The position numbers and the translations under genes are program-made. 64,000 bases of DNA, from assembly GCF_013385635.1 (NCBI RefSeq), contig NZ_JACAPR010000011.1:62001-126000 (forward strand), written 5' to 3'. This document shows positions 1 through 12,631 of this stretch, one piece after another. A model generated the notes under the pieces. That model saw nothing but the letters and a program-made list of their open reading frames with translations. It had not been told where the DNA came from and made no database searches. The number at the start of each line of letters is the position of its first letter. The stretch's first letter is position 1. This DNA is from Pseudomonas gingeri. Lineage in GTDB: Bacteria > Pseudomonadota > Gammaproteobacteria > Pseudomonadales > Pseudomonadaceae.

Positions 1-112
1 TGAACTGCGTGCCAAGGTGAACGAGATCATTAGGGCCGCCAAGGCTGACGGGACGCTGGACGCGATTTCGCAAAAATGGCTGGGAGCCCCGGCTGGTGAG
101 CTTCCAGAGTAA
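1..112 (+). CDS. C-terminal end of an amino-acid ABC transporter substrate-binding protein (partial)
   Basis: The window opens inside a gene read in frame 2, with a TAA stop at 110-112. The 36 visible residues form the usual C-terminal helix of SBP_bac_3 periplasmic receptors (Lys/Ala-rich helix, then DGTLD and a QKWLG-like end). The stop lies two bases before the ATG of the MmgE/PrpD gene, so it belongs to the same operon. It presumably delivers the ligand to the two permeases at 1497-2809. The ligand cannot be read from this tail. Identification rests on 36 residues plus context. Confidence 0.75.
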   Translation, partial: ELRAKVNEIIRAAKADGTLDAISQKWLGAPAGELPE

Positions 113-114
113 CC

Positions 115-1500
115 ATGAACGACCTTATCCCAACCCTCGTTGCGCTATCGCGCTGGAGCTCGACCGTGCGCCTGGAACAGGTTCCGTCCGCGGTCCGGCA
201 CGCGGCTAAACGTTGCCTGATCGATACGCTCGGGGTCACGCTGGCCGGCAGTCACAGCGACGTCGCCACTCAGGCGCGAACGATCGGCCTCGCCGTCAGC
301 GCCACCGGGCATGCAGAATTGCTGGGGCATGCCCAGCGACTCAGCGCACCGGCAGCGGCCTTCGTCAACGCGACGGCGGGACACGCGCTGGACTTCGACG
401 ATAACTGCTACCCAGGCGTCGTCCATGGCTCGGTGGTGATCATGCCAGCGGCCCTGGCCGTGGCGCAGATGCGTGACCTGGATGGTGCGGCGTTGCTGAT
501 GGCGTTTGTAGTGGGGGCCGAGTGTGAATACGCACTGGCCAAGGCGTTGACTCGCCAGCTCTATGAGCGCCGCTGGTGGACCACCGGGTTGTTGGGCGTC
601 GTCGGGGCCTGCGCGGCGGCGTGCCACGCCCTTGGGCTGGATGCCGAACGTACCGCCTCGGCGCTGGGGATTGCACTGTCCGGCACGGCGGCCATGAAGG
701 CCTGTTTTGGCACCGATGCCAAGGCCCTGATGGCCGGGCGCACCAGCGAGGCGGGCGTGATGGCCGCGCTGTTGGCCGAGCAGGGCAGCCGCGGGCCAGT
801 GGACATCGTCGAACATGCCAATGGCCTGGCGGTAATGTTCAACGCGGGTGTGCTCAAGACGTTGCCATCTCTGGGGGAGTCCTGGAGCCTGCTTGACCCG
901 GGCGTCGACATAAAGCGCATCCCGCTTTGCCTGTCATCCCATGCCGCCGTGGATGCGCTGAAGGACATGCTCGGGAGCGGTGGGGTAGCGGTCACGGATA
1001 TCGCCGAAATTGTCTGCGACGTTCCCCCCATTGTGATCCAGAACCTGACCCATGACTTGCCCGTACAGCGCCAGCAAGCGCAATTCAGCATGCCCTTCGC
1101 CATGGCCGGCACCTGCCTGTTGGGCGACATCACCCTCGCGGCGCTGACGCCGGAAACGATCAACCGCCCGGATATGCAACGGCTGATGAAGCGGGTGCGC
1201 ATGTACAGCAGCGAGCGCTGGAACACCGAGCGGCTGGATCAGGCGCCAGAAGGTGCATGGGTCAAGGTGGTACGCAATGACGGCGGCAGCGTCGAACGGT
1301 TTTGCGCAAGGCCGCTAGGGGCGGCGCTCAACCCTCTGTCCCGGGCGCAACTGCACGACAAGTTCATGGGCTGCGCCACACCGGGAATGCCCACCGCTCA
1401 AGCGCAAGCACTGTTTGAGCATCTGGAACAGTTGGAGCGTATCCCTCGGGTTCGCCGCCTCCTGCCTTATTCACATGCGGTGGAGCAGACCGACTCATGA
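115..1500 (+). CDS. MmgE/PrpD family protein
   Basis: A 461-residue protein of the MmgE/PrpD superfamily, which includes 2-methylcitrate dehydratase and cis-aconitate decarboxylase. The length is typical. The family's helical N-terminal core is recognisable: an ALDFDD segment at residues 91-96 and a conserved His at 104 in a GVVHGS context. The family acts on small carboxylic acids by dehydration, decarboxylation or isomerisation. The substrate here is unknown, because no propionate or methylcitrate gene is nearby. It sits between the binding-protein gene and the permeases and overlaps the first permease by ATGA, so it is co-translated with an amino-acid-type importer. That suggests it processes the imported compound or a breakdown product. 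Confidence 0.85.
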   Translation: MNDLIPTLVALSRWSSTVRLEQVPSAVRHAAKRCLIDTLGVTLAGSHSDVATQARTIGLAVSATGHAELLGHAQRLSAPAAAFVNATAGHALDFDDNCYPGVVHGSVVIMPAALAVAQMRDLDGAALLMAFVVGAECEYALAKALTRQLYERRWWTTGLLGVVGACAAACHALGLDAERTASALGIALSGTAAMKACFGTDAKALMAGRTSEAGVMAALLAEQGSRGPVDIVEHANGLAVMFNAGVLKTLPSLGESWSLLDPGVDIKRIPLCLSSHAAVDALKDMLGSGGVAVTDIAEIVCDVPPIVIQNLTHDLPVQRQQAQFSMPFAMAGTCLLGDITLAALTPETINRPDMQRLMKRVRMYSSERWNTERLDQAPEGAWVKVVRNDGGSVERFCARPLGAALNPLSRAQLHDKFMGCATPGMPTAQAQALFEHLEQLERIPRVRRLLPYSHAVEQTDS

Positions 1501-2153
1501 CATTGGATTTTTCTGTGGTACTGACGCAATGGCCACTGTTGCTGAAGGGGTTGCTGTTGACGGTGTTCCTCACGCTGTTCTCGGCGATTTTCGGCACGGC
1601 ATTGGGTATCGCCTGCGGTCTGGTGCGCAGCAAAGGCCCTGGTTGGGCGCGTTGGACAGTGGGGCTGTACGTCGAGCTGATCCGCAATACACCGTTCATC
1701 ATCCAGTTGTTCTTCATCTTCTTCGGGCTGCCGGCCCTGGGGCTGAAAATGACCGCACTGGCCGCTGCGATCCTGGCCAACGTGATCAACCTGGCAGCCT
1801 ATGTCAGCGAGATTGCCCGTTCGGGGATCGAGGCGACACCTGATGGGCAAATCGAGGCGGCGCAAAGCCTGGCGCTGGACCGCTGGCAGATTTTCTCCAG
1901 GGTGATCCTGCCTCCGGCGCTCAAGCGGGTGTGGCCGGCGCTGGTTGGCCAGATGGTGATCATCATGCTCGGGTCGGCCGTGTGCAGCCAGATCTCCACC
2001 GAAGAACTGACCTACGCCGCCAATCAGATCGCCAGCAACTCGTTCCGTAATTTCGAAACCTACATCGTGGTAGCGGGCCTGTACCTGCTGCTGGCCATCG
2101 CCTTGCGCCGCCTGCTGAACTGGGTCGGTCCGCGTTTTATCTTCGGTCGCTGA
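1497..2153 (+). CDS. Polar amino-acid ABC transporter permease (HisM/GlnP type), first subunit
   Basis: An inner-membrane permease of 218 residues with about five hydrophobic segments. The EAA coupling loop is visible around residues 119-140 (EAAQSLALDRW, then VILPPALK). An RNTPFIIQLFF motif near residue 63 is typical of His/Glu/Arg-type permeases. The start overlaps the upstream stop by 4 nt (ATGA). With the second permease and the ATPase it forms a standard PAAT-family importer; the two permeases are expected to heterodimerise. Confidence 0.92.
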   Translation: MTLDFSVVLTQWPLLLKGLLLTVFLTLFSAIFGTALGIACGLVRSKGPGWARWTVGLYVELIRNTPFIIQLFFIFFGLPALGLKMTALAAAILANVINLAAYVSEIARSGIEATPDGQIEAAQSLALDRWQIFSRVILPPALKRVWPALVGQMVIIMLGSAVCSQISTEELTYAANQIASNSFRNFETYIVVAGLYLLLAIALRRLLNWVGPRFIFGR

Positions 2154-2164
2154 GGGAAAACACC

Positions 2165-2809
2165 ATGTTCGAATTCTCCGCCTGGGATATCGCCCGCAAC
2201 CTGTTGCTGGCCATGCGCTGGACCATTGGCCTGTCGCTGATCGCGTTTATCGGCGGTGGCCTGGTGGGCGCGCTGTTGGTGGTCATGCGCCTGACCGGCA
2301 GCCGCCTGGTGCGCGGGCTGGTGATGTTGTACGTCCAGTTGTTCCAGGGCACGCCGCTGCTGTTGCAATTGTTTCTGGTGTATTTCGGCCTAGCCATGTT
2401 CGGTGTCAGAACGACCCCGTTGATGGCCGCGTCGGTGTGTCTGACCCTTTACGCCAGTGCCTACCTCACCGAGATCTGGCGGGGCAGCATCGAGTCTGTC
2501 GACCACGGCCAGTGGGAAGCTTCCGCCAGCCTGGCGCTGAGCTTCAGCGAACAGATGCGTTACGTGATTCTGCCCCAGGCGATGCGCGCCGGCATCGCGC
2601 CCACCGTTGGCTTCATGGTGCAGGTGGTCAAGGCTACGGCGCTGACCTCGGTCATCGGTTTCGTCGAAATGACCCGCGCCGGGCAGATCATCACCAATGC
2701 CACCTTCCAACCGTTCCTCATCTATGGCTCGGTCGCGCTGATGTACTTCGCGCTGTGCTTTCCGCTGTCGTGGTACAGCCGCGTACTTGAACAGAAACTT
2801 CGCCGATAG
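2165..2809 (+). CDS. Polar amino-acid ABC transporter permease, second subunit
   Basis: A 214-residue permease, paralogous to the preceding one. It has an FQGTPLLLQLF motif near residue 60 and an EAA loop near residues 118-138 (EASASLALSF, then VILPQAMR). It starts 11 nt after the first permease, and a GAGGGAAA stretch serves as ribosome-binding site. Having two unequal permeases is normal for PAAT transporters of basic amino acids, opines or guanidino compounds, so it does not identify the ligand. Confidence 0.92.
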   Translation: MFEFSAWDIARNLLLAMRWTIGLSLIAFIGGGLVGALLVVMRLTGSRLVRGLVMLYVQLFQGTPLLLQLFLVYFGLAMFGVRTTPLMAASVCLTLYASAYLTEIWRGSIESVDHGQWEASASLALSFSEQMRYVILPQAMRAGIAPTVGFMVQVVKATALTSVIGFVEMTRAGQIITNATFQPFLIYGSVALMYFALCFPLSWYSRVLEQKLRR

Positions 2810-2821
2810 GGGCTTGCCGAT

Positions 2822-3589
2822 ATGAATCCCTCCCACACCCATGACCCCAGGGCTGACTTTGCCCTGGTCGATATTCGCGGCCTGCGCAAACGCTTTGGTA
2901 GCAACGAGGTCCTCAAGGGCATCAACCTGCAGATCGCCCGCAAGGAAGTGGTCTGCATCATCGGCAAGAGCGGTTCCGGCAAGAGCACGCTGCTGCGCTG
3001 CCTGAACGGGCTGGAAACCTTCCAGGAAGGCAGCGTTGTGGTCGATGGCCAATCGATCCGTCACGATGACCGCCAGGCCATGCGCGAGTTGCGGCAGAAC
3101 GTCGGGATGATTTTCCAGGGCTTCAATCTGTTCCCGCACCTGAGCGCCGGGCAGAACGTGATGCTCGCTCCGCGCCTGGTGCAGAAAGCATCCCGTGCCG
3201 GCGCCGAACAACAGGCCCGCAAATTACTCGATCGTGTAGGGCTGGGTGAACGTTTTGATGCCTTCCCCGACCAGCTTTCCGGCGGCCAGCAGCAACGTGT
3301 TGCGATCGCCCGCTCCCTGGCGATGAACCCCCACGTATTGCTCTGCGACGAGATCACTTCAGCCCTGGACCCCGAACTGGTCGGCGAGGTGCTGAGCGTC
3401 GTCGAAGGGCTCGCCAAAGAGGGCATGACGCTGATCATGGTCACCCACGAAATGGCCTTTGCGCGCCGGGTCAGCGACCGGGTGATTTTCATGCATCAAG
3501 GCCTGGTTCATGAGGCCGGCGACCCCGAGACCCTGTTCACCACCCCGAAAACCGCTGAGTTGCGACGTTTCCTGTCCATGGAAAGTTGA
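2822..3589 (+). CDS. Polar amino-acid ABC transporter ATP-binding protein (GlnQ/HisP type)
   Basis: A 255-residue ABC ATPase. Walker A GKSGSGKST is at residues 48-56, signature LSGGQQQR near 155, Walker B LLCDE with the catalytic Glu followed by ITSALDPE near 178, and the switch His in MVTHEM near 208. ALDPE after Walker B is characteristic of the PAAT ATPases. It lies 12 nt after the second permease and completes the importer. The gene is full length and intact. Confidence 0.95.
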   Translation: MNPSHTHDPRADFALVDIRGLRKRFGSNEVLKGINLQIARKEVVCIIGKSGSGKSTLLRCLNGLETFQEGSVVVDGQSIRHDDRQAMRELRQNVGMIFQGFNLFPHLSAGQNVMLAPRLVQKASRAGAEQQARKLLDRVGLGERFDAFPDQLSGGQQQRVAIARSLAMNPHVLLCDEITSALDPELVGEVLSVVEGLAKEGMTLIMVTHEMAFARRVSDRVIFMHQGLVHEAGDPETLFTTPKTAELRRFLSMES

Positions 3590-3651
3590 TCGCCCAGCCC
3601 GTGATTTCACGTATTCGCCCTGCCTTCCCACTGCCCGTTCAGGAGACACCC

Positions 3652-4617
3652 ATGGATTTTCCATTGACCGTACCGCCGTCCAAAAAACACCAGAGCTTTC
3701 TGTGGTCGCCGATCTGCACCGACCTCGATCAGCTCGACGCTCACGTCGCGATTATCGGCATGCCTTTCGGCAAGGCCTACGTGGCAGAACACATCACCAA
3801 TGATCAAAGCCGGGCACCGGACGCCATTCGTGCCATGAGCGACCGAATCTGCCGTGCGCTGCACCATTACGACTTCGACGTAGGAGGCCCGATCTACGAC
3901 AACCGTGCGTTGAAAGTCGTCGACTGCGGCAACGTGCCCGCCGACCCGGGCGACCTGAGCAGCCATGGCGTGCGGGCCGAGCAGGCGGTACGCAAGATCC
4001 TCGAGGCGGGCGCCATGCCGATTGTACTGGGCGGTGATCATAGTATCCCGATCCCGATTCTGCGGGCCTATGAGGGCCGGGGGCCGATCACCCTCATTCA
4101 CATCGACGCGCACCTCGATTGGCGTGATGAAATCAACGGCGTGCGCGACGGCCTGTCCAGTCCGATCCGCCGTGCCTCGGAGATGGAGCATATCGGCGAA
4201 ATCTTCCAGATCGGCCTGCGTGCCCAAGGCAGCGGCCGGCAGACGGATTTCCAGGCGGCGGTGGACTATGGCGCACACCTGATCACCGCCTATGAGGTGC
4301 ATGACAACGGTATGCAGTCGGTGCTGGATCGGATTCCCGACAACGGCAACTACTACCTGACCATTGATGCCGACGGCCTCGACCCGTCGATCATGCCCGG
4401 TGTCGCCGGTCCTGCGCTAGGAGGCGTCACCTACGTGCAAATGCGCAAGCTGATTCATGGCCTGGTCAACAAAGGTAAGGTCGTCGGCATGGACATCGTC
4501 GAAATCACGCCCACGACCGACGTCAACAACATCAGTTGCATCACCGCAGGCCGCCTGATCGTGAACCTGATCGGTGCCGCTGTTCGCGCGGATTATTTCG
4601 ACGCGCCGACGCTGTAA
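3652..4617 (+). CDS. Ureohydrolase family protein (agmatinase/guanidino-acid hydrolase type)
   Basis: The ATG at 3652 is preferred because AGGAG lies at 3641-3645; this gives 321 residues, a normal agmatinase length. All six binuclear manganese ligands expected for ureohydrolases are present: H130 (GGDHS), D152, H154 and D156 (DAHLD), and D239 and D241 (DADGLDP). The family hydrolyses guanidino groups to urea plus an amine, on substrates such as agmatine, guanidinobutyrate or guanidinopropionate. Placed 62 nt after an amino-acid importer, it suggests that the imported compound carries or yields a guanidino or ureido group. No urease or arginine decarboxylase gene is in the window. The exact substrate cannot be read by eye. 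Confidence 0.88.
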   Translation: MDFPLTVPPSKKHQSFLWSPICTDLDQLDAHVAIIGMPFGKAYVAEHITNDQSRAPDAIRAMSDRICRALHHYDFDVGGPIYDNRALKVVDCGNVPADPGDLSSHGVRAEQAVRKILEAGAMPIVLGGDHSIPIPILRAYEGRGPITLIHIDAHLDWRDEINGVRDGLSSPIRRASEMEHIGEIFQIGLRAQGSGRQTDFQAAVDYGAHLITAYEVHDNGMQSVLDRIPDNGNYYLTIDADGLDPSIMPGVAGPALGGVTYVQMRKLIHGLVNKGKVVGMDIVEITPTTDVNNISCITAGRLIVNLIGAAVRADYFDAPTL

Positions 4618-4699
4618 TTTCAAGCCGTTTCCGGATCCAGCCCACGGTCGGAAGCGGTGCTTCCCCATTACTTTTCTTGTCGATAAAGCCAGGTCCATC

Positions 4700-5110
4700 A
4701 TGCCGACTCACACACGTATCCGAATGTTCAACACCAAGGACACCTACCCCAATCAGTCTCTGGACAATGACCTCTGCCAGGCCGTTCGCGCCGGTAACAC
4801 GGTTTACGTCAGGGGCCAATTGGGCACCGACTTCGACGGCAATTTAATCGGCCTGGGTGATGCCGGGGCGCAGGCCGAGCAGGCCATGAAAAACGTCAAG
4901 CAACTGCTTGAAGAAGCCGGCAGTCAACTGCAGGATATTGTGAAAATCACCATTTACCTGATCGACCCACGCTACCGGGAAGAGGTTTACCTGATCGTCG
5001 GAAAATGGCTCAAGGGTGTGTTCCCTATCTCCACCGGGTTGGTGGTCTCTGCATTGGGCCAGCCGCAATGGTTGATGGAAATCGACGTGATTGCGGTGAT
5101 CCCTGGCTGA
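4700..5110 (+). CDS. Rid family protein lacking the imine-deaminase arginine
   Basis: The ATG at 4700 gives 136 residues, the usual YjgF/YER057c/UK114 length. The family fold is recognisable in VRGQLG, the central helix ending in DIVKITIYLID, and the C-terminal MEIDVIAV strand. Canonical RidA uses an Arg in an F-P-A-R-S motif to deaminate enamines and imines. Here the equivalent stretch reads F-P-I-S-T, so the Arg is replaced by Ser. That places it with the Arg-less Rid subgroups, which lack classic deaminase activity and occur in catabolic operons. It is the last gene of the transport operon, 82 nt after the ureohydrolase. Confidence 0.85.
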   Translation: MPTHTRIRMFNTKDTYPNQSLDNDLCQAVRAGNTVYVRGQLGTDFDGNLIGLGDAGAQAEQAMKNVKQLLEEAGSQLQDIVKITIYLIDPRYREEVYLIVGKWLKGVFPISTGLVVSALGQPQWLMEIDVIAVIPG

Positions 5111-5535: not shown

Positions 5536-6429
5536 ATGAACCTGAGAACGTTGCGAGCCTTTGTCGAAGTTGTGCGTCAAGGAGGGTTCTCTCAGGCGGC
5601 GGAAGTGGTGTCCTTGACTCAGTCAACTGTCAGTAAAGCGGTGAAAACGCTTGAGGATGAATTGGGCACTCCGCTGTTTAACCGCATCGGCCACAAGAGT
5701 GAATTGACGGCGGCCGGAGAGATTGCCTATCGCCGCGCCCTGGTGCTGCTGGCCGAGCGCAGAGACTTGATTGCCGAGATCAACGATTTGCGCGGCTTGA
5801 AGCGTGGGATGTTGCGCCTGGGTTTGCCGCCGGTGGGTTGCGGTGTGTTGTTTGCGGAAATGTTTGCCACCTATCGCAGCCGCTATCCGGATATCGACAT
5901 CGAACTGGTCGAGCACGGCAGTAAAAAACTGCGCGAGTGCCTGGAGGCGGGAGAGGTGGACCTTGCCGCCCTGTTGATACCGGTGGACGAGGCGTTCGAC
6001 TATCAGGAAGTACGTAGCGAACCGCTGGTGGTGGTGTTGCCCGTCGACCATCCGCTCGCACGATGCCAACATGTCGACTTCTCCGCACTGGCAGACTCAC
6101 CGTTTATCTTGTTCGAGGCGGGATTTGCGTTGAACGCATTGATCATGGCTGCTTGTGAACGCAAGGGGGTGGTGCCGCGTGTTACAGCGCGTAGTGGGCA
6201 AATCGACTTTATCGTCGATCTGGTAGCGGCAGGCTTGGGTGTCGCGTTTTTACCGCGCATGCTTGCACACAAACATGAGCATGCAGGTATTGCCCTGGTC
6301 CCCCTGGATGAGCCGCAGACCGATTGGCATATTGCCTTGGCCTGGCGTGCCAGTGCGCATTTGCCACCGGCGGCCAGGGCTTGGCTGGACTTGGCGAAAG
6401 AGATGAATAGAGCGGTGCACCCTGGGTAA
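5536..6429 (+). CDS. LysR family transcriptional regulator
   Basis: A 297-residue LysR protein with its winged helix-turn-helix in the first 60 residues (FVEVVRQGGFSQAAEV, then TQSTVSKAVKTLEDELG). A substrate-binding domain follows from about residue 90 (RLGLPPVG). The length is typical. It follows the transport/ureohydrolase operon on the same strand after a 425-base gap. It may control that operon or the decayed gene on its other side. The effector is unknown. Confidence 0.9.
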   Translation: MNLRTLRAFVEVVRQGGFSQAAEVVSLTQSTVSKAVKTLEDELGTPLFNRIGHKSELTAAGEIAYRRALVLLAERRDLIAEINDLRGLKRGMLRLGLPPVGCGVLFAEMFATYRSRYPDIDIELVEHGSKKLRECLEAGEVDLAALLIPVDEAFDYQEVRSEPLVVVLPVDHPLARCQHVDFSALADSPFILFEAGFALNALIMAACERKGVVPRVTARSGQIDFIVDLVAAGLGVAFLPRMLAHKHEHAGIALVPLDEPQTDWHIALAWRASAHLPPAARAWLDLAKEMNRAVHPG

Positions 6430-6446
6430 AGACTTATCCTGGGTGC
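6417..6446 (+). terminator. Terminator-like hairpin overlapping the LysR stop codon
   Basis: Arms at 6417-6429 and 6434-6446 can pair over 12 of 13 positions, with one T:T mismatch, one G:T wobble and a four-base AGAC loop. The 5' arm contains the TAA stop of the LysR gene. There is no T-run afterwards, so intrinsic termination is uncertain; it may only protect the mRNA 3' end. Confidence 0.4.
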
Positions 6447-6731
6447 AAGGTGCGGGCCTTAGTGAGTGCGCATGCCCGCAGCGTACATCAACAGATGCAA
6501 CCCGGTGGCGATCGCCCCAGGACCAGCACGCTGCCGCCCCATGGCACTCAGATTTATATGCTCGATAAAACGACTTTTATAACTTCTTGCAAGTCATGAT
6601 TGGAATGCTGCGGAAGGCTGAAGCAGCGCAACACCGTGGGTGAGTGTTTTTTTTCGGCTTGTGAAGCGTGAGCGGACCCAGTGAAGACGGTGTGAGGAGC
6701 CCGGAGAGGCGGCCGTTCTCGAAACGTGTAG
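6447..6731. other. Gene-poor interval between two regulator genes
   Basis: No convincing gene was found here. A minus-strand frame ending at a TAA (6461-6459) has a plausible hydrophobic tail (GAIATGLHLLMYAAG) but no recognisable start or family. It could be the eroded C-terminus of a membrane protein. Confidence 0.3.
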
Positions 6732-7631
6732 CTAGCGTCTCGCATCGGCCTGATCTGTTCCGCCTGACGGGTCAAATTCGGTCACCAGGTATTCAATCAC
6801 CTTGCTCACTCGCGCGGTGTGGCGCAGGTCTTTGTGGGTTACCAACCAGACATCGTAGGTATGTGATCGGGTTCGCTCCGGCCAGACCTGAAGCAGTCCG
6901 GCGCGCTCGCCCATATACAAGGGGATCTCCCCCAACCCAAGCCCTGCCGACAGTGCCGTACGCACCAGCAAACTGCTATTGGCGCTGGCAACCATGCGCG
7001 CACCTGGAACTGCTTCCTGCGCCAAGTTGTAGCGCTCACCAGTGTCCACATGGGCCTGAAACGCAACGATATCATGGCCGGCGAATCCGGTACCCGCTTT
7101 CGGCGTGCCGTTACGCTCCAGATATTGGCGTGAGGCGAATAGTCCGATCGGCCAACTGGCCAGACGACGTACCAGAAGATCGGGATTGTCAGGCTTGATT
7201 GTACGGATGGCGATGTCCGCTTCACGTTTGGCCAGATTAAGTGCCTCGACCCCGGATTTGATCTCCACCCGAACATCCGGGTATGCAGCATGGAGTCGGG
7301 CAATGGCAGGGATCACGAAGTCCACGGCAAGGGAGTCTGTTGAAGCAATACGCACCAGGCCCGTGGCGCGCTCGTCCAGCCCTTCGATACGGCGCTGTAG
7401 TTCGTTGCCAGCCTGCTCCATTTTCTCTGCGGCATCCAATGCGGCTTCCCCGGCGGGGGTCAGCGTGTACCCGTCTGAAGCTCGCAAAAACAGGGTGGCC
7501 TTCAACGCACGTTCCAGTGCAACGATTCGTCTTCCTACTGTCGCCTGATCGACATTCAATACGCGCGCGGCGCCTCGCAGTGTCGATACGCGTGCCAGCG
7601 TGAGGAAAAACCGTGCGTCATCCCAATTCAT
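6732..7631 (-). CDS. LysR family transcriptional regulator
   Basis: The preferred ATG at 7631 is preceded by GGAG at suitable spacing, giving 299 residues; an in-frame ATG at 7652 would add seven. The N-terminal helix-turn-helix (MNWDDARFFLTLARV, then DQATVGRRIVALERAL) and the effector domain (STDSLAVDFVIP) place it in the LysR branch that often sits divergent from a single oxidoreductase gene. That arrangement is seen here: the quinone oxidoreductase gene at 7771 diverges from it across a 139-base gap containing two palindromes. It probably controls that gene. Confidence 0.9.
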   Translation of the reverse strand: MNWDDARFFLTLARVSTLRGAARVLNVDQATVGRRIVALERALKATLFLRASDGYTLTPAGEAALDAAEKMEQAGNELQRRIEGLDERATGLVRIASTDSLAVDFVIPAIARLHAAYPDVRVEIKSGVEALNLAKREADIAIRTIKPDNPDLLVRRLASWPIGLFASRQYLERNGTPKAGTGFAGHDIVAFQAHVDTGERYNLAQEAVPGARMVASANSSLLVRTALSAGLGLGEIPLYMGERAGLLQVWPERTRSHTYDVWLVTHKDLRHTARVSKVIEYLVTEFDPSGGTDQADARR

Positions 7632-7647
7632 AGGGTTCTCCAGGTGC

Positions 7648-7700
7648 TGCATTTATGCATCGTTGGTGTGCTTAATGGCTGCATTATTTCACGTGTGAAA
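7648..7700. promoter_or_regulatory. Two palindromes in the LysR/quinone oxidoreductase divergent promoter
   Basis: TGCAT-TT-ATGCA lies at 7648-7659 and TTTCAC-GT-GTGAAA at 7687-7700. Both are perfect inverted repeats with two-base centres between divergent genes. They are candidate operator sites for the adjacent LysR protein. The second, midway between the genes, is the better candidate. Functional assignment is inferred from position only. Confidence 0.4.
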
Positions 7701-7770
7701 GACCGTATGCTGAATGCCTTCAACGGGTCGATGTCACAGCCTGTACATACTTTCTCAATGAGGTGTATCC

Positions 7771-8769
7771 ATGAATTTGCCCAGTCGCATGAACTACGTC
7801 GAGATTACCCAACCCGGTGGGCCGCAAGTGCTGAAGTTGGCGCAGGCCGCCGTTCCAGAGCCCGCTGGGCATGAGTTGCTGATCAAGGTTCATGCCGCTG
7901 GCATCAACCGTCCCGATGTCATCCAGCGCGCTGGCAAGTACCCGATGAAACCAGGGATGAGTCCGGTGCCCGGGCTGGAAGTGGCAGGAGAGGTCGTTGG
8001 GGTCGGTTCCGCTGTTTCAGGCTTCAAGCTGGGCGACAAGGTATGTGCGTTGACCAACGGTGGCGGATACGCCGAGTATTGCATCGTATCTGCAACTCAG
8101 GCACTGCCGATTCCCGACGGTGTGGATATGATCCATGCGGCTGCTATCCCGGAAACATTCTTCACCGTGTGGGTCAATCTGTTCGAACTGGGCCAGGCTC
8201 GTGAAGGCGCAACCGTGCTGATCCACGGCGGGACCAGTGGCATCGGTACCACTGCGCTGATGTTGTGCAAGGCGCTGGGTATCAAGGCTTTTGCAACAGC
8301 GGGCAGTGAGGAAAAATGCGAGCAGATCCGTGCTCTGGGAGGGGAGGCGATCAACTATCGTGAGGCCGATTTTTCACAGGTCATCGCCAGGCAAACTGAC
8401 GGCAGGGGCGTAGACGTCATTCTCGACATCATGGGCGGTAGTTATTTCGATGGCAATGTGGCGTCTCTCGCCCGCCGTGGGCGCCTGGTAATCATCGGCT
8501 TTATGGGGGGGAGTTCTGTGAAGGACTTCAGTCTGCCGGCGTTGATAGATAAGCAGGCCTCGGTGACGGGCTCGATGATGCGTTCACGCACTACCGAGGA
8601 AAAAGCCGAGATTGCCCGGGCGGTGAAAACCCATATCTGGCCGTTGCTCATTCAGGGACGGTGCCTGCCCATCATTGATCGCACTTTTTCGCTCAGTGAG
8701 GCCGCCCTCGCTCACCAACGAATGGAGGAGGGTGAGCACATTGGTAAGATTGTGCTGAAGGTGGTTTGA
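7771..8769 (+). CDS. NAD(P)H-dependent quinone oxidoreductase (zinc-independent MDR family)
   Basis: A 332-residue medium-chain dehydrogenase/reductase of the quinone oxidoreductase type. The N-terminal GroES-like domain contains HAAGINRPDVIQRAGKYP near residues 48-65. The Rossmann fold starts at about residue 148 (VLIHGGTSGIGTTA), where the nucleotide-binding glycines are intact. The zinc-binding Cys cluster of alcohol dehydrogenases is absent, as in the quinone-reductase branch. GAGGTG upstream supports the start. It is divergent from a LysR gene, a common arrangement for electrophile- or quinone-responsive reductases. Confidence 0.9.
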   Translation: MNLPSRMNYVEITQPGGPQVLKLAQAAVPEPAGHELLIKVHAAGINRPDVIQRAGKYPMKPGMSPVPGLEVAGEVVGVGSAVSGFKLGDKVCALTNGGGYAEYCIVSATQALPIPDGVDMIHAAAIPETFFTVWVNLFELGQAREGATVLIHGGTSGIGTTALMLCKALGIKAFATAGSEEKCEQIRALGGEAINYREADFSQVIARQTDGRGVDVILDIMGGSYFDGNVASLARRGRLVIIGFMGGSSVKDFSLPALIDKQASVTGSMMRSRTTEEKAEIARAVKTHIWPLLIQGRCLPIIDRTFSLSEAALAHQRMEEGEHIGKIVLKVV

Positions 8770-8805
8770 AGGTGGAACATGGTGTTGGCCGTTTCTACGC
8801 CGACG

Positions 8806-9687
8806 CTAGCTTGTTTCAAAGCGCCCGCGCAAGACGTGAATATGCTGCGCCAGATGATCCATGAACGCTTTTATCCGGCCTGAGCCTCGCAGATGCGGAT
8901 GCGTCAGCAGCCACAGGCCGGGTGAGAGTGCCCGGGGCGGAAACTCGAGCAATTCCAGTTCCGTGCCGTGCGCCATGAAGCAGGGCAGTACGGTGGCTCC
9001 GGTTCCGATTTCGGCAAGCCGGCGCAGTGCCAAAAATGAATCGGCAGTGGCGGCAATGGTTGCGCCGCCGATGCGTTCGCGCAGCCATGGATTGATCGGT
9101 CCTTCCGCGAGTTGGCCGTCGGGCAGCAGCCAGGTTTGTACGGCAGGTCCATGACGGCCTGCTTTCAGGCAAGAAGGTCCGGCGTACACTCCCCAGTCCA
9201 TTCGCGCCAAGGATTTGCCGACCCAGGCGGGGGGCGGTTCGTGCGTGGGGCGTAAGGCTACATCCGCCTCGCGCCGATCCAGGTCCAGCCGGGCATTTGT
9301 GATGCGCATTTCCACGGTGATTGCCGGGAACCGTTCGTGAAAGGTATGCAGGATGTTCGGCAGGATGCAGTCGGCAAGCGAATCCGTCGTGGTGAAACGT
9401 ACCGGGCCTGCGAGGCCCTTGGCCTGACCTTCCATTTCGCGCCGGGCTCCAGTCAGGGCGCGTTCGAGTGCCTCGCCGATTTCAATAAGGCGCTGTCCCG
9501 CATCGGTGGGGATATAGCCGGTTTGCAGGCGGTCGAAGAGCGCCGTACCGACCTCTTGTTCGAGCGCTTGCAAGCGCCTCAGCACGGTGGCGTGCGAAAC
9601 CCCCAGCGCGCGCGCGGCGCCCGCTGCCGATCCGCCACGCGCCATTGCTAGCAGGTAGCGCAAATCATTCCAATCGAGGTCTTTCAT
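8806..9687 (-). CDS. LysR family transcriptional regulator
   Basis: An ATG at 9687 gives a normal start (MKDLDWNDLRYLLAMARGG) and 293 residues; an in-frame start at 9720 would add eleven with no family support. The helix-turn-helix is clear (SAAGAARALGVSHATVLRRL), followed by an effector domain beginning FTTTDSLADCILP. It diverges from the DoxX gene at 9825, its likely target. It converges on the quinone oxidoreductase gene. It belongs to the same LysR branch as the regulator at 6732-7631, so the two probably arose by duplication. Confidence 0.88.
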   Translation of the reverse strand: MKDLDWNDLRYLLAMARGGSAAGAARALGVSHATVLRRLQALEQEVGTALFDRLQTGYIPTDAGQRLIEIGEALERALTGARREMEGQAKGLAGPVRFTTTDSLADCILPNILHTFHERFPAITVEMRITNARLDLDRREADVALRPTHEPPPAWVGKSLARMDWGVYAGPSCLKAGRHGPAVQTWLLPDGQLAEGPINPWLRERIGGATIAATADSFLALRRLAEIGTGATVLPCFMAHGTELELLEFPPRALSPGLWLLTHPHLRGSGRIKAFMDHLAQHIHVLRGRFETS

Positions 9688-9824
9688 GGGAGAACCGTCG
9701 TGCCCGGTAGGATTTACCAAGTATCTGTTTATTTTTGCAGGGTTGATGTCTGTTTATAGCTATTTTCGAACAGGTGGGGCGCAGTTCATCATCAGGCACC
9801 AACTTTATCAAGGTGCTATCCATC

Positions 9825-10232
9825 ATGTTCGACAACAAAACGGCCCCGTATGGGGTGTTATTGCTGCGTGCGCTGCTCGGCTTTTCTTTTCTGGCCCATG
9901 TCAGCGTGAAGCTGTTTGTCTATACGGTACCGGGGTTCGTTAGCTATTTTGGTTCATTGGGACTGCCGCCCGTCCTGGCCTATCTGACCATCATGCTTGA
10001 GTTGCTGGGCAGCCTGGCGTTGATCCTCGGCATCTACGCGCGCTGGGTGGCTGTGCCATTGGTTTTCGAACTGCTGGGTACGATTGCTGTGGTGCATAGC
10101 AAGCTTGGGTGGGAGTTCAACAACAGCGGGGGCGGTTGGGAATATCCTGCTTTCTGGGCGATTGCCCTGGTCGTGTTCATCTTGCTGGGCGATGGTCCCT
10201 ACGCCCTGCTTCCGTCACGCCGGGTAGAGTGA
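9825..10232 (+). CDS. DoxX family membrane protein
   Basis: A 135-residue inner-membrane protein with four hydrophobic segments. The DoxX family pattern is visible: LLLRALLGFSFLAHVSVK near the N-terminus, a PPVLAYLTIMLELLGSLALI helix and a C-terminal ALVVFILLGDGP helix. The ATG at 9825 follows AAGGTG; upstream in-frame codons look non-coding. DoxX proteins are linked to redox or quinone-related functions, but biochemistry is known for only a few. The divergent LysR gene is its likely regulator, and a strong terminator lies 88 bases downstream. Confidence 0.85.
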   Translation: MFDNKTAPYGVLLLRALLGFSFLAHVSVKLFVYTVPGFVSYFGSLGLPPVLAYLTIMLELLGSLALILGIYARWVAVPLVFELLGTIAVVHSKLGWEFNNSGGGWEYPAFWAIALVVFILLGDGPYALLPSRRVE

Positions 10233-10320
10233 ACGCAAGGTACACCTGGCCCGCGTCGACCTGGGAGATTTCAATGGGGCGGACGCCAGATGTGAGTCTC
10301 GTTCTCTGCTCTCAATACAC

Positions 10321-10351
10321 AAAAACGCCACTCTATTTGGGTGGCGTTTTT
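10321..10351 (+). terminator. Rho-independent terminator after the DoxX gene
   Basis: AAAAACGCCAC at 10321-10331 and GTGGCGTTTTT at 10341-10351 form a perfect 11-base inverted repeat around a nine-base loop. A-rich and T-rich flanks make it a bidirectional intrinsic terminator. Confidence 0.85.
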
Positions 10352-10714
10352 GTTGGTGTGTGTTCATGTCGCAACTATCGTACCTGCCGATCACAGGGCT
10401 CAGGGACGCGAAGGCACGTCTGACCTGTCAAGCAAGGCGTCTAGCACCGCTCGGACAGAATCGTGGAGTCAATCAGATCCGTCAGAAAACCCGCTTGTGC
10501 TCAAGCAGCCGGGCGTACCTTGCAGGCTGATAATGATGTCTATGTGCTATCATTTTCACGCCAATGAAGGCATGTCCACATTATCGTCGGTGTCAGCCTT
10601 TTCTTTCGATGTGGCGACCGTTGCCGAGTCAGGTCTGATGACCGGCTCAAGTCGCCTGCTTCGTTCATTGAGAAGAGCTAAAGGCTGCCCCTTAGTCAAC
10701 AGTCAGGTTTGTGC
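10352..10714. other. Stretch without a recognisable gene
   Basis: The bases between the terminator and the lipoprotein gene contain only short frames with no family resemblance on either strand. The last hundred bases are less GC-rich and probably hold the lipoprotein promoter. No repeat or RNA structure was recognised. Confidence 0.4.
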
Positions 10715-11068
10715 ATGATAAAAATATTCAAGTTTTCACTGATCGTTTCATGCGTAGTTATTTCGGCTTGCTCAGGGGTTCCCTATGCACCCAAAGGCTC
10801 GACAATGTACAAAGGTGGTTATAACGAAGTAAAAACAGGTGCCAATACCTACACGGTTACTTTTGAAGGCAATGCTTACAATAAAGAAGATCAAGTTGTA
10901 GGGTTTGTCAAAAGAAGGGCGGATGAACTATGTCACCCATTGAAGGCACAAGCAGAGGTTCGCCCTTTTCTTAAAGGGGCAACCAGTTATGCTGCCTTCA
11001 ATGGACAGCTCTATGTATCAGAGCATAAATTCCCTAGTGCAGAAGCATCTGTTGTTTGTGTCGAGTAA
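10715..11068 (+). CDS. Small lipoprotein resembling the CC0125/CC1285 family
   Basis: A 117-residue protein starting at the ATG 10715. A lysine-containing N-terminus and hydrophobic stretch end in the lipobox VISAC (lipidated Cys about residue 19), so it is an exported lipoprotein. The mature part has GGYNEVKTGANTYTVTFEGN, a pattern I associate with the CC0125/CC1285 lipoproteins of unknown function, and two further cysteines that could pair. Base composition is visibly lower in GC than its neighbours, hinting at recent acquisition. No functional partner is adjacent. Confidence 0.75.
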   Translation: MIKIFKFSLIVSCVVISACSGVPYAPKGSTMYKGGYNEVKTGANTYTVTFEGNAYNKEDQVVGFVKRRADELCHPLKAQAEVRPFLKGATSYAAFNGQLYVSEHKFPSAEASVVCVE

Positions 11069-11272
11069 GACATAAAAATGCTCGAAATCATTCGCTGAGC
11101 TACCTGGGGCGGGCAGGGCCCTGCTCCCTTATCAGGATTGCATGAGCGAAGCACTGGATTCTGACTGAGCGTTGCCAGACATCGGCCGCCTTGGCTCAAT
11201 CCATCACGGTTAACGTGGAGCATGAGCCTACACACACACGGTTCCACGCCGTGCAACAGAGGCTCATATCAG

Positions 11273-11413
11273 ATGAAACGGGTGCTTATGTTACTGGCCT
11301 GTCCCGTCCTGAGTAAGGTCAAGGTTCCCGCCGCGCTGGTGCACGCAGCGTTCATGGCCGGGCTGCAATTTGGTTACGCGAAAGTGGTGAGCACGGATGA
11401 GTATCTGGCATGA
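11273..11413 (+). CDS. Possible small hypothetical protein
   Basis: A 46-codon frame with ATG at 11273 and a GAGG-containing stretch about ten bases upstream. The first 15 residues are hydrophobic (VLMLLACPVL), and the end (AFMAGLQFGYAKV) looks protein-like but matches no family I know. It may be a tiny exported peptide, the eroded end of a larger gene or chance. The rest of 11069-11431 shows nothing else. Confidence 0.2.
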   Translation: MKRVLMLLACPVLSKVKVPAALVHAAFMAGLQFGYAKVVSTDEYLA

Positions 11414-11431
11414 CGATGAATTCAATCACCC

Positions 11432-12631
11432 CTACGCTTTGTGCAACGAAATGGAACCGGGAGCCGCTTCAGCCTGCTGCAAATGCGGCGGCGCCAACCG
11501 CAAGGTATTGCGGCCTGAACCCTTGGCCTCGTAAAGCGCCGCATCGGCCCTGGCGAGCAGGCTGGCGGTAGTATCGCCTTCATCAGGCACCACGCAGCAA
11601 ACACCAATACTGATGCGCAGTGGGATGGTTGACTCACCATAGTGCGCCGGCGACTCGGCCAACGAGGCTCGCAGTTCATCAAGCACGGCCACGGCACCTT
11701 CGGGACCGGTGCTTGGCAGCAACAGCAGAAACTCTTCGCCACCATAACGACCAATACTGTCGGAATGACGGATTCGCTGGGTGATATGGTTGACGCAGTG
11801 ACAAATCACTTCATCCCCCGCCAGGTGGCCATGCTTGTCATTGATCTGTTTGAAGTGATCGATATCGACCATGGCCACTGCCAGATAGGAGCCGTCCCGG
11901 CGCGAGCGCTCCAGCTCTATGGAAAACTGCTCAAGGATCGCTCGACGGTTGAGAATGCCGGTCAGCACATCACGCAGGGCCAGGTGTTGCAGCAAGGTCT
12001 CGCTGCGTTCTTTGGACAACAGCACCAGGCCCAGGGAAATCATCATCGCGGTGAACGTGCCAATGCTGACCGAGATGGTTTGCTTGAGGTTGCTGACGTC
12101 GTAACGCATTTCGGCAGCACTTCCGCCCAGCACGGCCACCACCCGCATCCCCAGCCCGATCAGGCTGATACTGGAACCGATGATCAACAGCATGCGCGCG
12201 CGACCCTGGGCGGGGATGTGGCGGCGAGTCCAGTAGATGATCAGTGCACACTGCACCATCAATACGAGCGTGGCGGCGAGCATCCTGGGTTCCAGGGTGT
12301 CGATCAGGCTGACCATCAATACCAGCATCAATGCCGCTGGTGCGAACACTCGCCACCAACTGACGGGTAGCTGAACGATCCGAAACACGCTGGCCCCATA
12401 AAAGGCCAGGGCCACCGCCAGCAATGTATTGGCGGCGCCGTAGGTCAACCACAACGGCGCATGGCCGTAAAAGGTGTAGCCAATGTAGGCCAAGGCGTGC
12501 GCCAACAGGCCAAAGCCTGTCGTGAGCAGTCCGTCACGCTGGTTGAACTGACCGACCAGGATCAGGCAGAACGCCATGATCGTCGCGACCAGAGCGACAC
12601 AGGCGAAAAGCGTAGGAGTGTGAGCAATCAT
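11432..12631 (-). CDS. Membrane-bound diguanylate cyclase (GGDEF domain)
   Basis: A 399-residue protein. Residues 1-205 contain six to seven membrane segments without a recognised ligand domain. A GGDEF domain follows from about residue 220 (LALRDVLTGILNRRA). The active-site motif is GGEEF at 297-301, compatible with cyclic-di-GMP synthesis. The product-inhibition I-site RxxD (R288, D291) sits five residues upstream, so feedback control is expected. No EAL domain is fused. The gene is monocistronic, facing away from the 12805 gene. The input signal is unknown. Confidence 0.92.
   Translation of the reverse strand: MIAHTPTLFACVALVATIMAFCLILVGQFNQRDGLLTTGFGLLAHALAYIGYTFYGHAPLWLTYGAANTLLAVALAFYGASVFRIVQLPVSWWRVFAPAALMLVLMVSLIDTLEPRMLAATLVLMVQCALIIYWTRRHIPAQGRARMLLIIGSSISLIGLGMRVVAVLGGSAAEMRYDVSNLKQTISVSIGTFTAMMISLGLVLLSKERSETLLQHLALRDVLTGILNRRAILEQFSIELERSRRDGSYLAVAMVDIDHFKQINDKHGHLAGDEVICHCVNHITQRIRHSDSIGRYGGEEFLLLLPSTGPEGAVAVLDELRASLAESPAHYGESTIPLRISIGVCCVVPDEGDTTASLLARADAALYEAKGSGRNTLRLAPPHLQQAEAAPGSISLHKA

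What the first reader, a model, noticed from the sequence alone, without database searches (positions are those of the whole stretch)
1..5110. Unassigned catabolic operon: amino-acid importer + MmgE/PrpD + ureohydrolase + Arg-less Rid
A PAAT transporter, a PrpD-fold enzyme, a ureohydrolase with all six metal ligands and a Rid protein are packed in one operon with overlaps or short gaps. I know no named pathway with this combination. It suggests import of a guanidino- or ureido-acid, release of urea, and further processing of the carbon skeleton.
Basis: partly seen in the sequence, partly recalled or inferred. Interest (0 to 1): 0.6.

Follow-up and report, generated by a model that had tools for sequence, protein, structure and literature searches.

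The report
Operon for eating capped acidic amino acids
A Pseudomonas carries a set of genes that probably imports an acidic amino acid whose nitrogen is blocked by a small amidine cap, corrects its handedness and removes the cap, which would give a testable role to an enzyme family now labelled 'agmatinase'.

Summary
The operon starts 1.7 kb upstream of the window: MurR/RpiR-type regulator, amino-acid binding protein, MmgE/PrpD protein, two permeases, ATPase, ureohydrolase (UH), Rid.

Four results move the interpretation. (1) The Rid is 79-90% identical to a Rid found outside the operon in 55 of 79 Pseudomonas genomes. Its usual neighbours (flavin monooxygenase, DUF1028, M20) match hinF-hinL-hinH-hinG of the histamine/imidazoleacetate pathway, which ends in aspartate. 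(2) The PrpD protein is closest to iminodisuccinate epimerase (an N-substituted aspartate) and keeps both proposed bases. (3) The UH has an Arg (R158) present in 90 of 90 family members and 4 of 4 true formiminoglutamases, but in 0 of 34 other arginase-fold rows outside its near relatives. (4) 57 of 57 UH-linked binding proteins keep the carboxylate Arg but lack the alpha-amino Asp.

Best model: uptake of an alpha-N-capped acidic amino acid, most likely N-formimino-aspartate; PrpD epimerises it, UH frees aspartate plus formamide, and Rid is a HinL-like imine hydrolase. N-formimino-glutamate and guanidinosuccinate remain open. No activity was measured.

The parts
1..112 (+). 3' end of the PAAT-type solute-binding protein gene; the whole gene is L005:13312-14112, outside the window
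   Evidence: HisJ R77 kept, HisJ D161 replaced by Gly
115..1500 (+). MmgE/PrpD-family protein, probable epimerase of an N-substituted acidic amino acid
   Evidence: Pfam PF03972 and PF19305; best solved relative iminodisuccinate epimerase 2hp3/2hp0; bases H104 and Y150; fold Z 48.4
1497..2153 (+). PAAT ABC importer permease 1
   Evidence: PF00528, TIGR01726 above cut-off
2165..2809 (+). PAAT ABC importer permease 2
   Evidence: PF00528, TIGR01726 above cut-off
2822..3589 (+). PAAT ABC importer ATPase (GlnQ-like)
   Evidence: PF00005; best NCBIfam match GlnQ, below its equivalog cut-off
3652..4617 (+). ureohydrolase (arginase fold), probable N-formimino- or N-amidino-amino-acid hydrolase
   Evidence: PF00491 213 bits; six metal ligands, R158 and R196 in 90 of 90 family members; AlphaFold model pLDDT 87.1
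4700..5110 (+). Rid protein without the RidA Arg, HinL-type
   Evidence: PF01042; 86-90% identical to the Rids of 27 hin-type loci; nested among such Rids in the tree

Best explanation
The operon takes up and breaks down an acidic amino acid whose alpha-nitrogen carries a one-carbon amidine cap, most likely N-formimino-aspartate, an intermediate between imidazoleacetate and aspartate. Proposed steps: (1) the PAAT importer binds the carboxylates but not a free alpha-amino group; (2) the MmgE/PrpD protein interconverts the D and L forms of the capped amino acid, as iminodisuccinate epimerase does for another N-substituted aspartate; (3) the binuclear-metal ureohydrolase, its R158 holding the alpha-carboxylate, splits the L form into aspartate and formamide (urea if the cap is an amidino group); (4) the Rid, a paralogue of HinL, hydrolyses a C=N bond of the same compound or of its ring precursor, a side route that elsewhere is completed by an M20 deformylase; (5) the MurR/RpiR-type protein regulates. 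Shown: gene set, family relations, conserved residues, linkages. Inferred: every reaction, the exact substrate, and the regulation.
For: Rid: 79-90% identical to a Rid outside the operon in 55 of 79 Pseudomonas genomes (full-length rows). In the 27 best-scoring short loci (86-90%) a flavin monooxygenase is adjacent in 24, and DUF1028 plus M20 too in 21; the window's own genome has all four genes. Order and kinds match HinF (FAD-monooxygenase), HinL (enamine deaminase), HinH (amidase) and HinG (EC 3.5.1.8) in a table of PMC6467879; that pathway ends in aspartate and then fumarate (PMC8231116). The 9 Pseudomonas operon Rids form one clade (100/99) inside 27 Rids from outside the operon. PrpD: iminodisuccinate epimerase ranks first by sequence and by fold (Z 48.4, against 45.6 for cis-aconitate decarboxylase and 39.1 for 2-methylcitrate dehydratase). 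The bases H99 and Y145 named for it in PMC7347537 are H104 and Y150, kept in 27 of 27 sequences (window's included); the position of IDS-epimerase H150 is W. A 34% relative in Cupriavidus lies in an importer operon with an asparaginase, near aspartate ammonia-lyase. UH: R158 in 90 of 90 family members and 4 of 4 proteins over the HutG cut-off, 0 of 34 other rows. UH lies with asparaginase and aspartate ammonia-lyase in L092 and L055 and near an ArgE-like M20 protein in 20 of 90 loci; the two of these scanned (L022, L096) and the hin-type one (L216) match the same subfamily, PRK07522. Binding proteins: Arg77 kept and Asp161 absent in 57 of 57 UH-linked ones; Asp present in 6 of 6 E. coli references and 7 of 7 binding proteins of other importers in Achromobacter loci.
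Against: By overall score and fold the UH is nearer to guanidino-hydrolases (agmatinase model 158 bits, HutG 108; Z 36.8 to 1wog, 32.9 to the nearest formiminoglutamase). R158 is not unique to HutG and this family: near relatives at 37-43% (second UH of L024 and L025, L100, L116, L117) have it too. The V of the 'PGV' loop, shared with HutG, also occurs in L018 and L178, so it is not diagnostic. Other UH loci point to glutamate: GltS-like carrier in 5 Providencia loci, HutF in 7 Azospirillum clusters (a second copy in both of those genomes tested), a second HutU in 2 genomes. A urea-carboxylase-associated protein in 4 loci, each with a second UH, hints at guanidine chemistry. No HinF-type monooxygenase was found in the stretches held for the 90 UH loci, nor any relative of the window genome's own formamidases or urease. 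Of the 90 loci, 63 lack a PrpD of this type and 32 lack any such Rid. The PrpD label changes at least six times on a quick UH tree, which can mean repeated gain or repeated loss. The operon's link to hinFLHG rests on gene order and kinds, not on the published sequences. Free N-formimino-aspartate as a nutrient is not documented in anything I read.
Confidence: 0.45

Rival explanations
1. Same logic, but the substrate is N-formimino-glutamate (FIGLU) taken from outside: UH is a second formiminoglutamase that gives glutamate and formamide.
For: GltS-like carrier before UH in 5 Providencia loci; HutF in 7 Azospirillum clusters, a second copy in both of those genomes tested; second HutU next to UH or PrpD in 2 genomes that also have a canonical HutU; R158 shared with HutG.
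Against: Four of six UH genomes tested have a separate protein over the HutG cut-off, and the window's genome has canonical hutU and hutF. The Rid belongs with the aspartate-ending histamine-type cluster. Aspartate ammonia-lyase and asparaginase lie with UH in two loci.
Confidence: 0.2
2. The substrate is guanidinosuccinate (N-amidino-aspartate): UH is a guanidinosuccinase that gives aspartate and urea, and PrpD epimerises the D form.
For: Overall UH similarity to guanidino-hydrolases; urea-carboxylase-associated protein in 4 double-UH loci; aspartate ammonia-lyase linkage; iminodisuccinate epimerase as closest PrpD relative.
Against: The HinL-type Rid and the M20 proteins have no evident role with a guanidino cap. 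No urease relative was found in the 90 UH loci. The HutG-type Arg may mark a formimino rather than an amidino substrate, though it could equally mark any alpha-carboxylate.
Confidence: 0.2
3. One reading: a guanidino- or ureido-acid with a spacer (guanidinobutyrate, guanidinopropionate, arginine derivative) is imported, UH frees urea, and PrpD and Rid process the carbon skeleton.
For: The closest solved UHs by sequence are guanidinobutyrase, an agmatinase and guanidinopropionase.
Against: The window's genome already has a GbuA-like enzyme (L101: same PGTGTPE and DVN motifs as 3nio). UH differs at R158 and R196. The binding proteins lack the alpha-amino Asp. PrpD resembles an epimerase of an N-substituted aspartate, not a skeleton enzyme.
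Confidence: 0.1

Closest known systems
Lower histamine/imidazoleacetate pathway (HinFLHG, HinI) of Pseudomonas putida U and P. aeruginosa
   Same: A closely related Rid (HinL type); in related UH clusters also an M20 protein of the same subfamily and, twice, aspartate ammonia-lyase; probable end product aspartate
   Different: No flavin monooxygenase and no DUF1028 in the window operon; it has an importer, an epimerase-like PrpD and an arginase-fold hydrolase instead
Histidine utilisation (HutG formiminoglutamase; HutF plus deformylase branch)
   Same: Arginase-fold hydrolase with Arg after the DxHxD motif; HutF or HutU copies in some UH clusters
   Different: UH scores far below the HutG cut-off and lies in a dedicated transport operon; canonical hutU and hutF are elsewhere in the window's genome
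Iminodisuccinate degradation of Agrobacterium tumefaciens BY6 (epimerase plus C-N lyase; known to me from titles cited in PMC7347537)
   Same: PrpD-fold protein closest to the epimerase, both proposed bases kept
   Different: A hydrolase of the arginase fold takes the place of the C-N lyase; the natural substrate differs
Guanidino-acid ureohydrolases (GbuA, GpuA, agmatinase)
   Same: Fold, metal ligands, about 30% identity
   Different: R158, R196 and the PGV loop in place of their residues; different gene company

Membership tests
Formiminoglutamase HutG | NCBIfam TIGR01227 above curated cut-off | tested here: not met
   108 bits against 229
Formiminoglutamase HutG | Arg two residues after the DxHxD metal motif | tested here: met
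   R158; same in 4 of 4 HutG proteins. That this marks HutG is my observation on these four, not a published definition that I read
Agmatinase | NCBIfam TIGR01230 above curated cut-off | tested here: not met
   158.1 bits against 174.3; PRK02190 155 against 302
Ureohydrolase superfamily | six metal ligands and arginase fold | tested here: met
2-methylcitrate dehydratase PrpD | NCBIfam equivalog score | tested here: not met
   NF042438 41 bits against 950; fold Z 33-39 to dehydratases against 48 to IDS epimerase
Iminodisuccinate epimerase | two proposed bases H99 and Y145 | tested here: met
   H104 and Y150, 27 of 27 sequences (residues named in PMC7347537)
Iminodisuccinate epimerase | epimerase activity on an N-substituted aspartate | not testable with these tools
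   needs the pure enzyme
cis-Aconitate decarboxylase | both His named as acid/base in PMC7347537 (H103 and H159) | tested here: not met
   H104 kept; the position of the RFHPPS His, which I take to be H159, is W155
Hin (histamine) lower pathway | HinL-type Rid | tested here: met
   86-90% identity to Rids of hin-type loci and nested position. That these loci are hinFLHG rests on gene order and kinds, not on a comparison with PA5390-5393
Hin (histamine) lower pathway | flavin monooxygenase, DUF1028 and M20 genes in the operon | tested here: not met
   none in the window operon; all present at contig C25 of the same genome
RidA (Arg-containing Rid) | substrate-binding Arg | tested here: not met
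   Ser in 57 of 57 UH-linked Rids, the window's included
PAAT importer of free alpha-amino acids | Asp161 (HisJ) for the alpha-amino group | tested here: not met
   Gly in the window's binding protein; Asp in 0 of 57 UH-linked ones

The most novel reading that the evidence does not exclude
A new catabolic route: an MmgE/PrpD-fold epimerase of alpha-N-capped (formimino or amidino) aspartate works with a new ureohydrolase specificity that frees aspartate in one step, with its own importer. The same hydrolase, now annotated agmatinase, has been combined in different Pseudomonadota with PrpD, HinL-type Rid, HutF, HutU, M20 or aspartate ammonia-lyase to drain N-capped acidic amino acids from histidine, histamine or related metabolism.
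Probability: 0.4. Interest if true: 0.65.

Novelty: new variant of a known kind. Interest (0 to 1): 0.5.

Why it matters
The ureohydrolase family was seen at 55-100% identity in 90 loci here (80 of 171 stretches found, plus others). In 16 of the 18 plasmid records at 61% identity or more it is named agmatinase; the other two have no annotation there. Yet the window's member falls below the agmatinase cut-off and the family has a different active site. If the model holds, it gives this family a substrate class, gives a function to an MmgE/PrpD subgroup (epimerases of N-substituted acidic amino acids), and places Arg-less HinL-type Rids in amidine (C=NH) hydrolysis. Purified proteins and a few synthetic compounds would test it.

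Tried and rejected
Guanidinosuccinate was my first idea (after). It was demoted when HutF and HutU copies, the HutG-type Arg and the HinL link appeared; it is kept as a rival.

Ureohydrolases at 40-44% identity in 47 of 298 Pseudomonas genomes: context was read in two genomes (L141, L143) and gave nothing useful. 23 of 23 short loci of the main group have DAHLDFV, and PGTGTP in the one whose loop was printed. Two 43% proteins (L116, L117) instead carry DAHLDWR. Plasmid relatives at about 42%, some on Ti-type plasmids, gave little beyond an aspartate ammonia-lyase near one.

Product from neighbours: relatives of the window genome's formamidases and urease were sought in the UH loci and none was found; both exist elsewhere in the genome, so this does not decide between formamide and urea. 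The promoter/terminator scan gave no more hits than shuffled sequence. Formiminoglutamases are listed for the UH model but below agmatinases, so fold does not decide.

S-methyl-thiourocanate and ergothioneine routes were considered because NCBIfam names related HutU families. The window genome has a HutU paralogue at C25, but not near this operon. L029 and L094 were not counted as PrpD cases: their proteins match the window's at 32 and 26% only, and that of L029 lacks the Tyr base.

They covered guanidinosuccinate and ureohydrolase, iminodisuccinate epimerase, guanidinosuccinase, thiourocanate, formiminoaspartate and imidazoleacetate, ureohydrolase with aspartate ammonia-lyase, histamine in P. 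putida U, MmgE PrpD epimerase clusters, and Hin proteins. None of the listings showed this operon. The library holds open-licence papers only, and I did not see the original histamine paper.

Recounts made for this version: UH residues, Rid Ser and binding-protein Asp; two binding proteins had been counted twice, so 59 became 57.


Full report
WHAT IS THERE. The window is part of contig C3 of a 7.45-Mb genome, a Pseudomonas by its relatives: its ureohydrolase is 100% identical to that of P. gingeri A6001. The operon reads: MurR/RpiR-type regulator (L005:12325-13245; named by 53% identity to the MurR/RpiR regulator annotated before the UH in Ewingella L098), PAAT-type binding protein (L005:13312-14112), MmgE/PrpD (window 115-1500), permeases (1497-2153, 2165-2809), ATPase (2822-3589), ureohydrolase (3652-4617), Rid (4700-5110). 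The finding is correct; the missing binding protein lies just upstream.

CONSERVATION. A genome-contig scan found 171 stretches that encode relatives of the ureohydrolase; the best 80 were kept. With the window's own locus, eight plasmid records and one further genome, 90 loci hold a member at 55% identity or more. Neighbours within 8 kb in the stretches held, n = 90: Rid 58, one of them (L029) at 41% only; PrpD 29, of which L029 and L094 (32 and 26%) were dropped, leaving 27; ArgE-like M20 20; RpiR type 18; second ureohydrolase 8, plus one more in L024; HutF 8, of which L029 (26%) was dropped, leaving 7, all Azospirillum; GltS 6, of which L025 (30%) was dropped, leaving 5 Providencia; urea-carboxylase-associated protein 4; HutU 2; aspartate ammonia-lyase 2. 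Some loci are short, and many come from close species, so these counts are neither complete nor independent. Within the window's genus, 4 of 298 genomes carry the ureohydrolase at 90% or more, counting the window's own, and one at 62%. On a quick tree of 88 rows the PrpD label needs at least six changes, so PrpD and the hydrolase have come together, or parted, several times.

THE HYDROLASE. It matches Pfam Arginase (213 bits) but falls below the cut-offs for agmatinase (158 of 174) and HutG (108 of 229). The six metal ligands, R158 (in DAHLDWR) and R196 (in RAQGSGR) are kept in 90 of 90 members. At the place of R158, four proteins that pass the HutG cut-off all have Arg (DAHFDLR or DAHLDLR), while 34 other arginase-fold rows have N, M, Y, V or W; 24 of those 34 are one close group. 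Exceptions outside the family: the 37% second ureohydrolases of L024 and L025, a 43% protein in two Pseudomonas genomes and one at 43% in Agrobacterium also have WR. In arginase the aligned residue is N130, which I recall as a contact of the alpha-carboxylate. The loop after the second metal motif reads PGV or PAV in all 90 members, as in HutG, against PGT in most guanidino enzymes seen here; but V also occurs in two other proteins (L018, L178), so I give it little weight. By overall fold the AlphaFold model (pLDDT 87) is nearer to agmatinase and guanidine hydrolases than to formiminoglutamases. The residue evidence therefore says 'alpha-carboxylate next to the scissile nitrogen'; it does not by itself separate a formimino from an amidino cap.

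THE MmgE/PrpD PROTEIN. Iminodisuccinate epimerase is the closest solved relative by sequence (E 2.4e-46) and by fold (Z 48.4, rmsd 2.4, 442 residues; cis-aconitate decarboxylase 45.6; dehydratases 33-39; model pLDDT 89.5). PMC7347537 (passages) gives H99 and Y145 as the two suggested bases of the epimerase; the window has H104 and Y150. All 27 sequences of the ureohydrolase-linked group, the window's included, keep both and have W where the epimerase has H150 and the decarboxylase its RFHPPS His. Relatives at 34% lie in importer operons with asparaginase, with aspartate ammonia-lyase further on (Cupriavidus), and with sarcosine oxidase (Parasedimentitalea). Both contexts suit an enzyme for N-substituted amino acids. 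Epimerase action remains an inference.

THE BINDING PROTEIN. Six E. coli references keep R77 and D161 (HisJ numbering). In 57 ureohydrolase loci a binding protein of one of three groups was found; all 57 keep the Arg, and for the Asp they have Pro (35), Gly (16 of the window's group and 2 others) or Ser (4). Controls: seven binding proteins of other importers in Achromobacter loci keep the Asp, and so do one of another importer in L095 and the Cupriavidus and Parasedimentitalea ones, which have no ureohydrolase beside them. This fits a ligand without a free alpha-amino group. The 57 fall into three groups, so they are a few events, not 57.

THE Rid AND THE HISTAMINE LINK. Of 79 genomes of the genus searched with the window Rid, 55 have a full-length match at 79-90% outside the operon. 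In the 27 best-scoring of these loci a flavin monooxygenase is adjacent in 24, and DUF1028 and an M20 protein follow in 21; three (L197, L201, L211) showed none of these within 1.5 kb. The window's own genome has all four at C25. This is the order and the set of kinds reported for HinF-HinL-HinH-HinG: FAD-monooxygenase, enamine deaminase, amidase, EC 3.5.1.8 amidase, with HinI an aspartate ammonia-lyase (PMC6467879 table; order and pathway to aspartate and fumarate, PMC8231116). I could not compare with the published HinL sequence itself. In a 79-row tree the nine Pseudomonas operon Rids form one clade (100/99) inside 27 Rids from outside the operon (labelled by being outside it, not each checked for neighbours), and the Rids of ureohydrolase clusters in other genera fall outside (few columns, many weak forks). 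The M20 proteins of L022 and L096 (ureohydrolase clusters) and of L216 (hin-type cluster) match the same NCBIfam subfamily, PRK07522. Aspartate ammonia-lyase occurs with the ureohydrolase in L092 and L055, each time with an asparaginase; L094 has an asparaginase alone.

MECHANISM. Taken together: import of an alpha-N-capped acidic amino acid; epimerisation by PrpD (imidazolones lose their stereochemistry easily, as I recall, so a racemic capped aspartate is plausible); cleavage by the hydrolase to aspartate plus formamide; and imine hydrolysis by the HinL-type Rid as a parallel step. HutF in seven Azospirillum clusters (a second copy in both genomes tested) and second HutU copies in two other genomes show that the same hydrolase is drawn into pathways of histidine type. 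They also keep a glutamate substrate open. The urea-carboxylase-associated gene in double-ureohydrolase loci keeps a guanidino substrate open. No tool here can decide between these.

VERDICT. It is a new variant of a known kind: known folds and a known logic in a new combination, with a concrete and testable substrate class.

Noticed in passing
L144 (G000:C25:46000-64000), positions 5540-12466: In the window's genome, a HutU paralogue and a DUF917-like gene lie beside an MFS-like carrier and a HutH-like ammonia-lyase with a signal-peptide-like start; this looks like a dedicated route for a modified histidine. All names but HutU are read by eye.
   Followed up: no
L214 (G000:C25:23000-42000), 7115-11157: The window's genome has the hin-type monooxygenase and Rid next to a second, PRK06184-type FAD monooxygenase, with DUF1028 and M20 on the other strand a few kb away.
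   Followed up: partly
L091:9001-14814, L093:8968-14713, L095:8998-14077, L020:7974-13051: Operons with two ureohydrolases around a PAAT importer, in L091 and L093 followed directly by an annotated urea-carboxylase-associated protein (a relative also follows in L020). Both hydrolases keep their metal ligands, unlike the degenerate subunit reported for metformin hydrolase (PMC11399263, passages).
   Followed up: partly
L029:8001-16939: Bosea: ureohydrolase, N-carbamoylase-type M20 protein, PrpD of another subfamily and an amidohydrolase that reads like a hydantoinase in a row, then Rid stretches and DUF1028.
   Followed up: partly
L017:2759-3043: A 94-aa remnant of a urocanate hydratase C-terminus between an aminotransferase and PrpD in a betaproteobacterial metagenome contig.
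   Followed up: no
L182:1859-11712: Parasedimentitalea plasmid: PrpD and a PAAT importer beside sarcosine oxidase alpha, beta and delta genes, suggesting N-methyl amino acid use.
   Followed up: no
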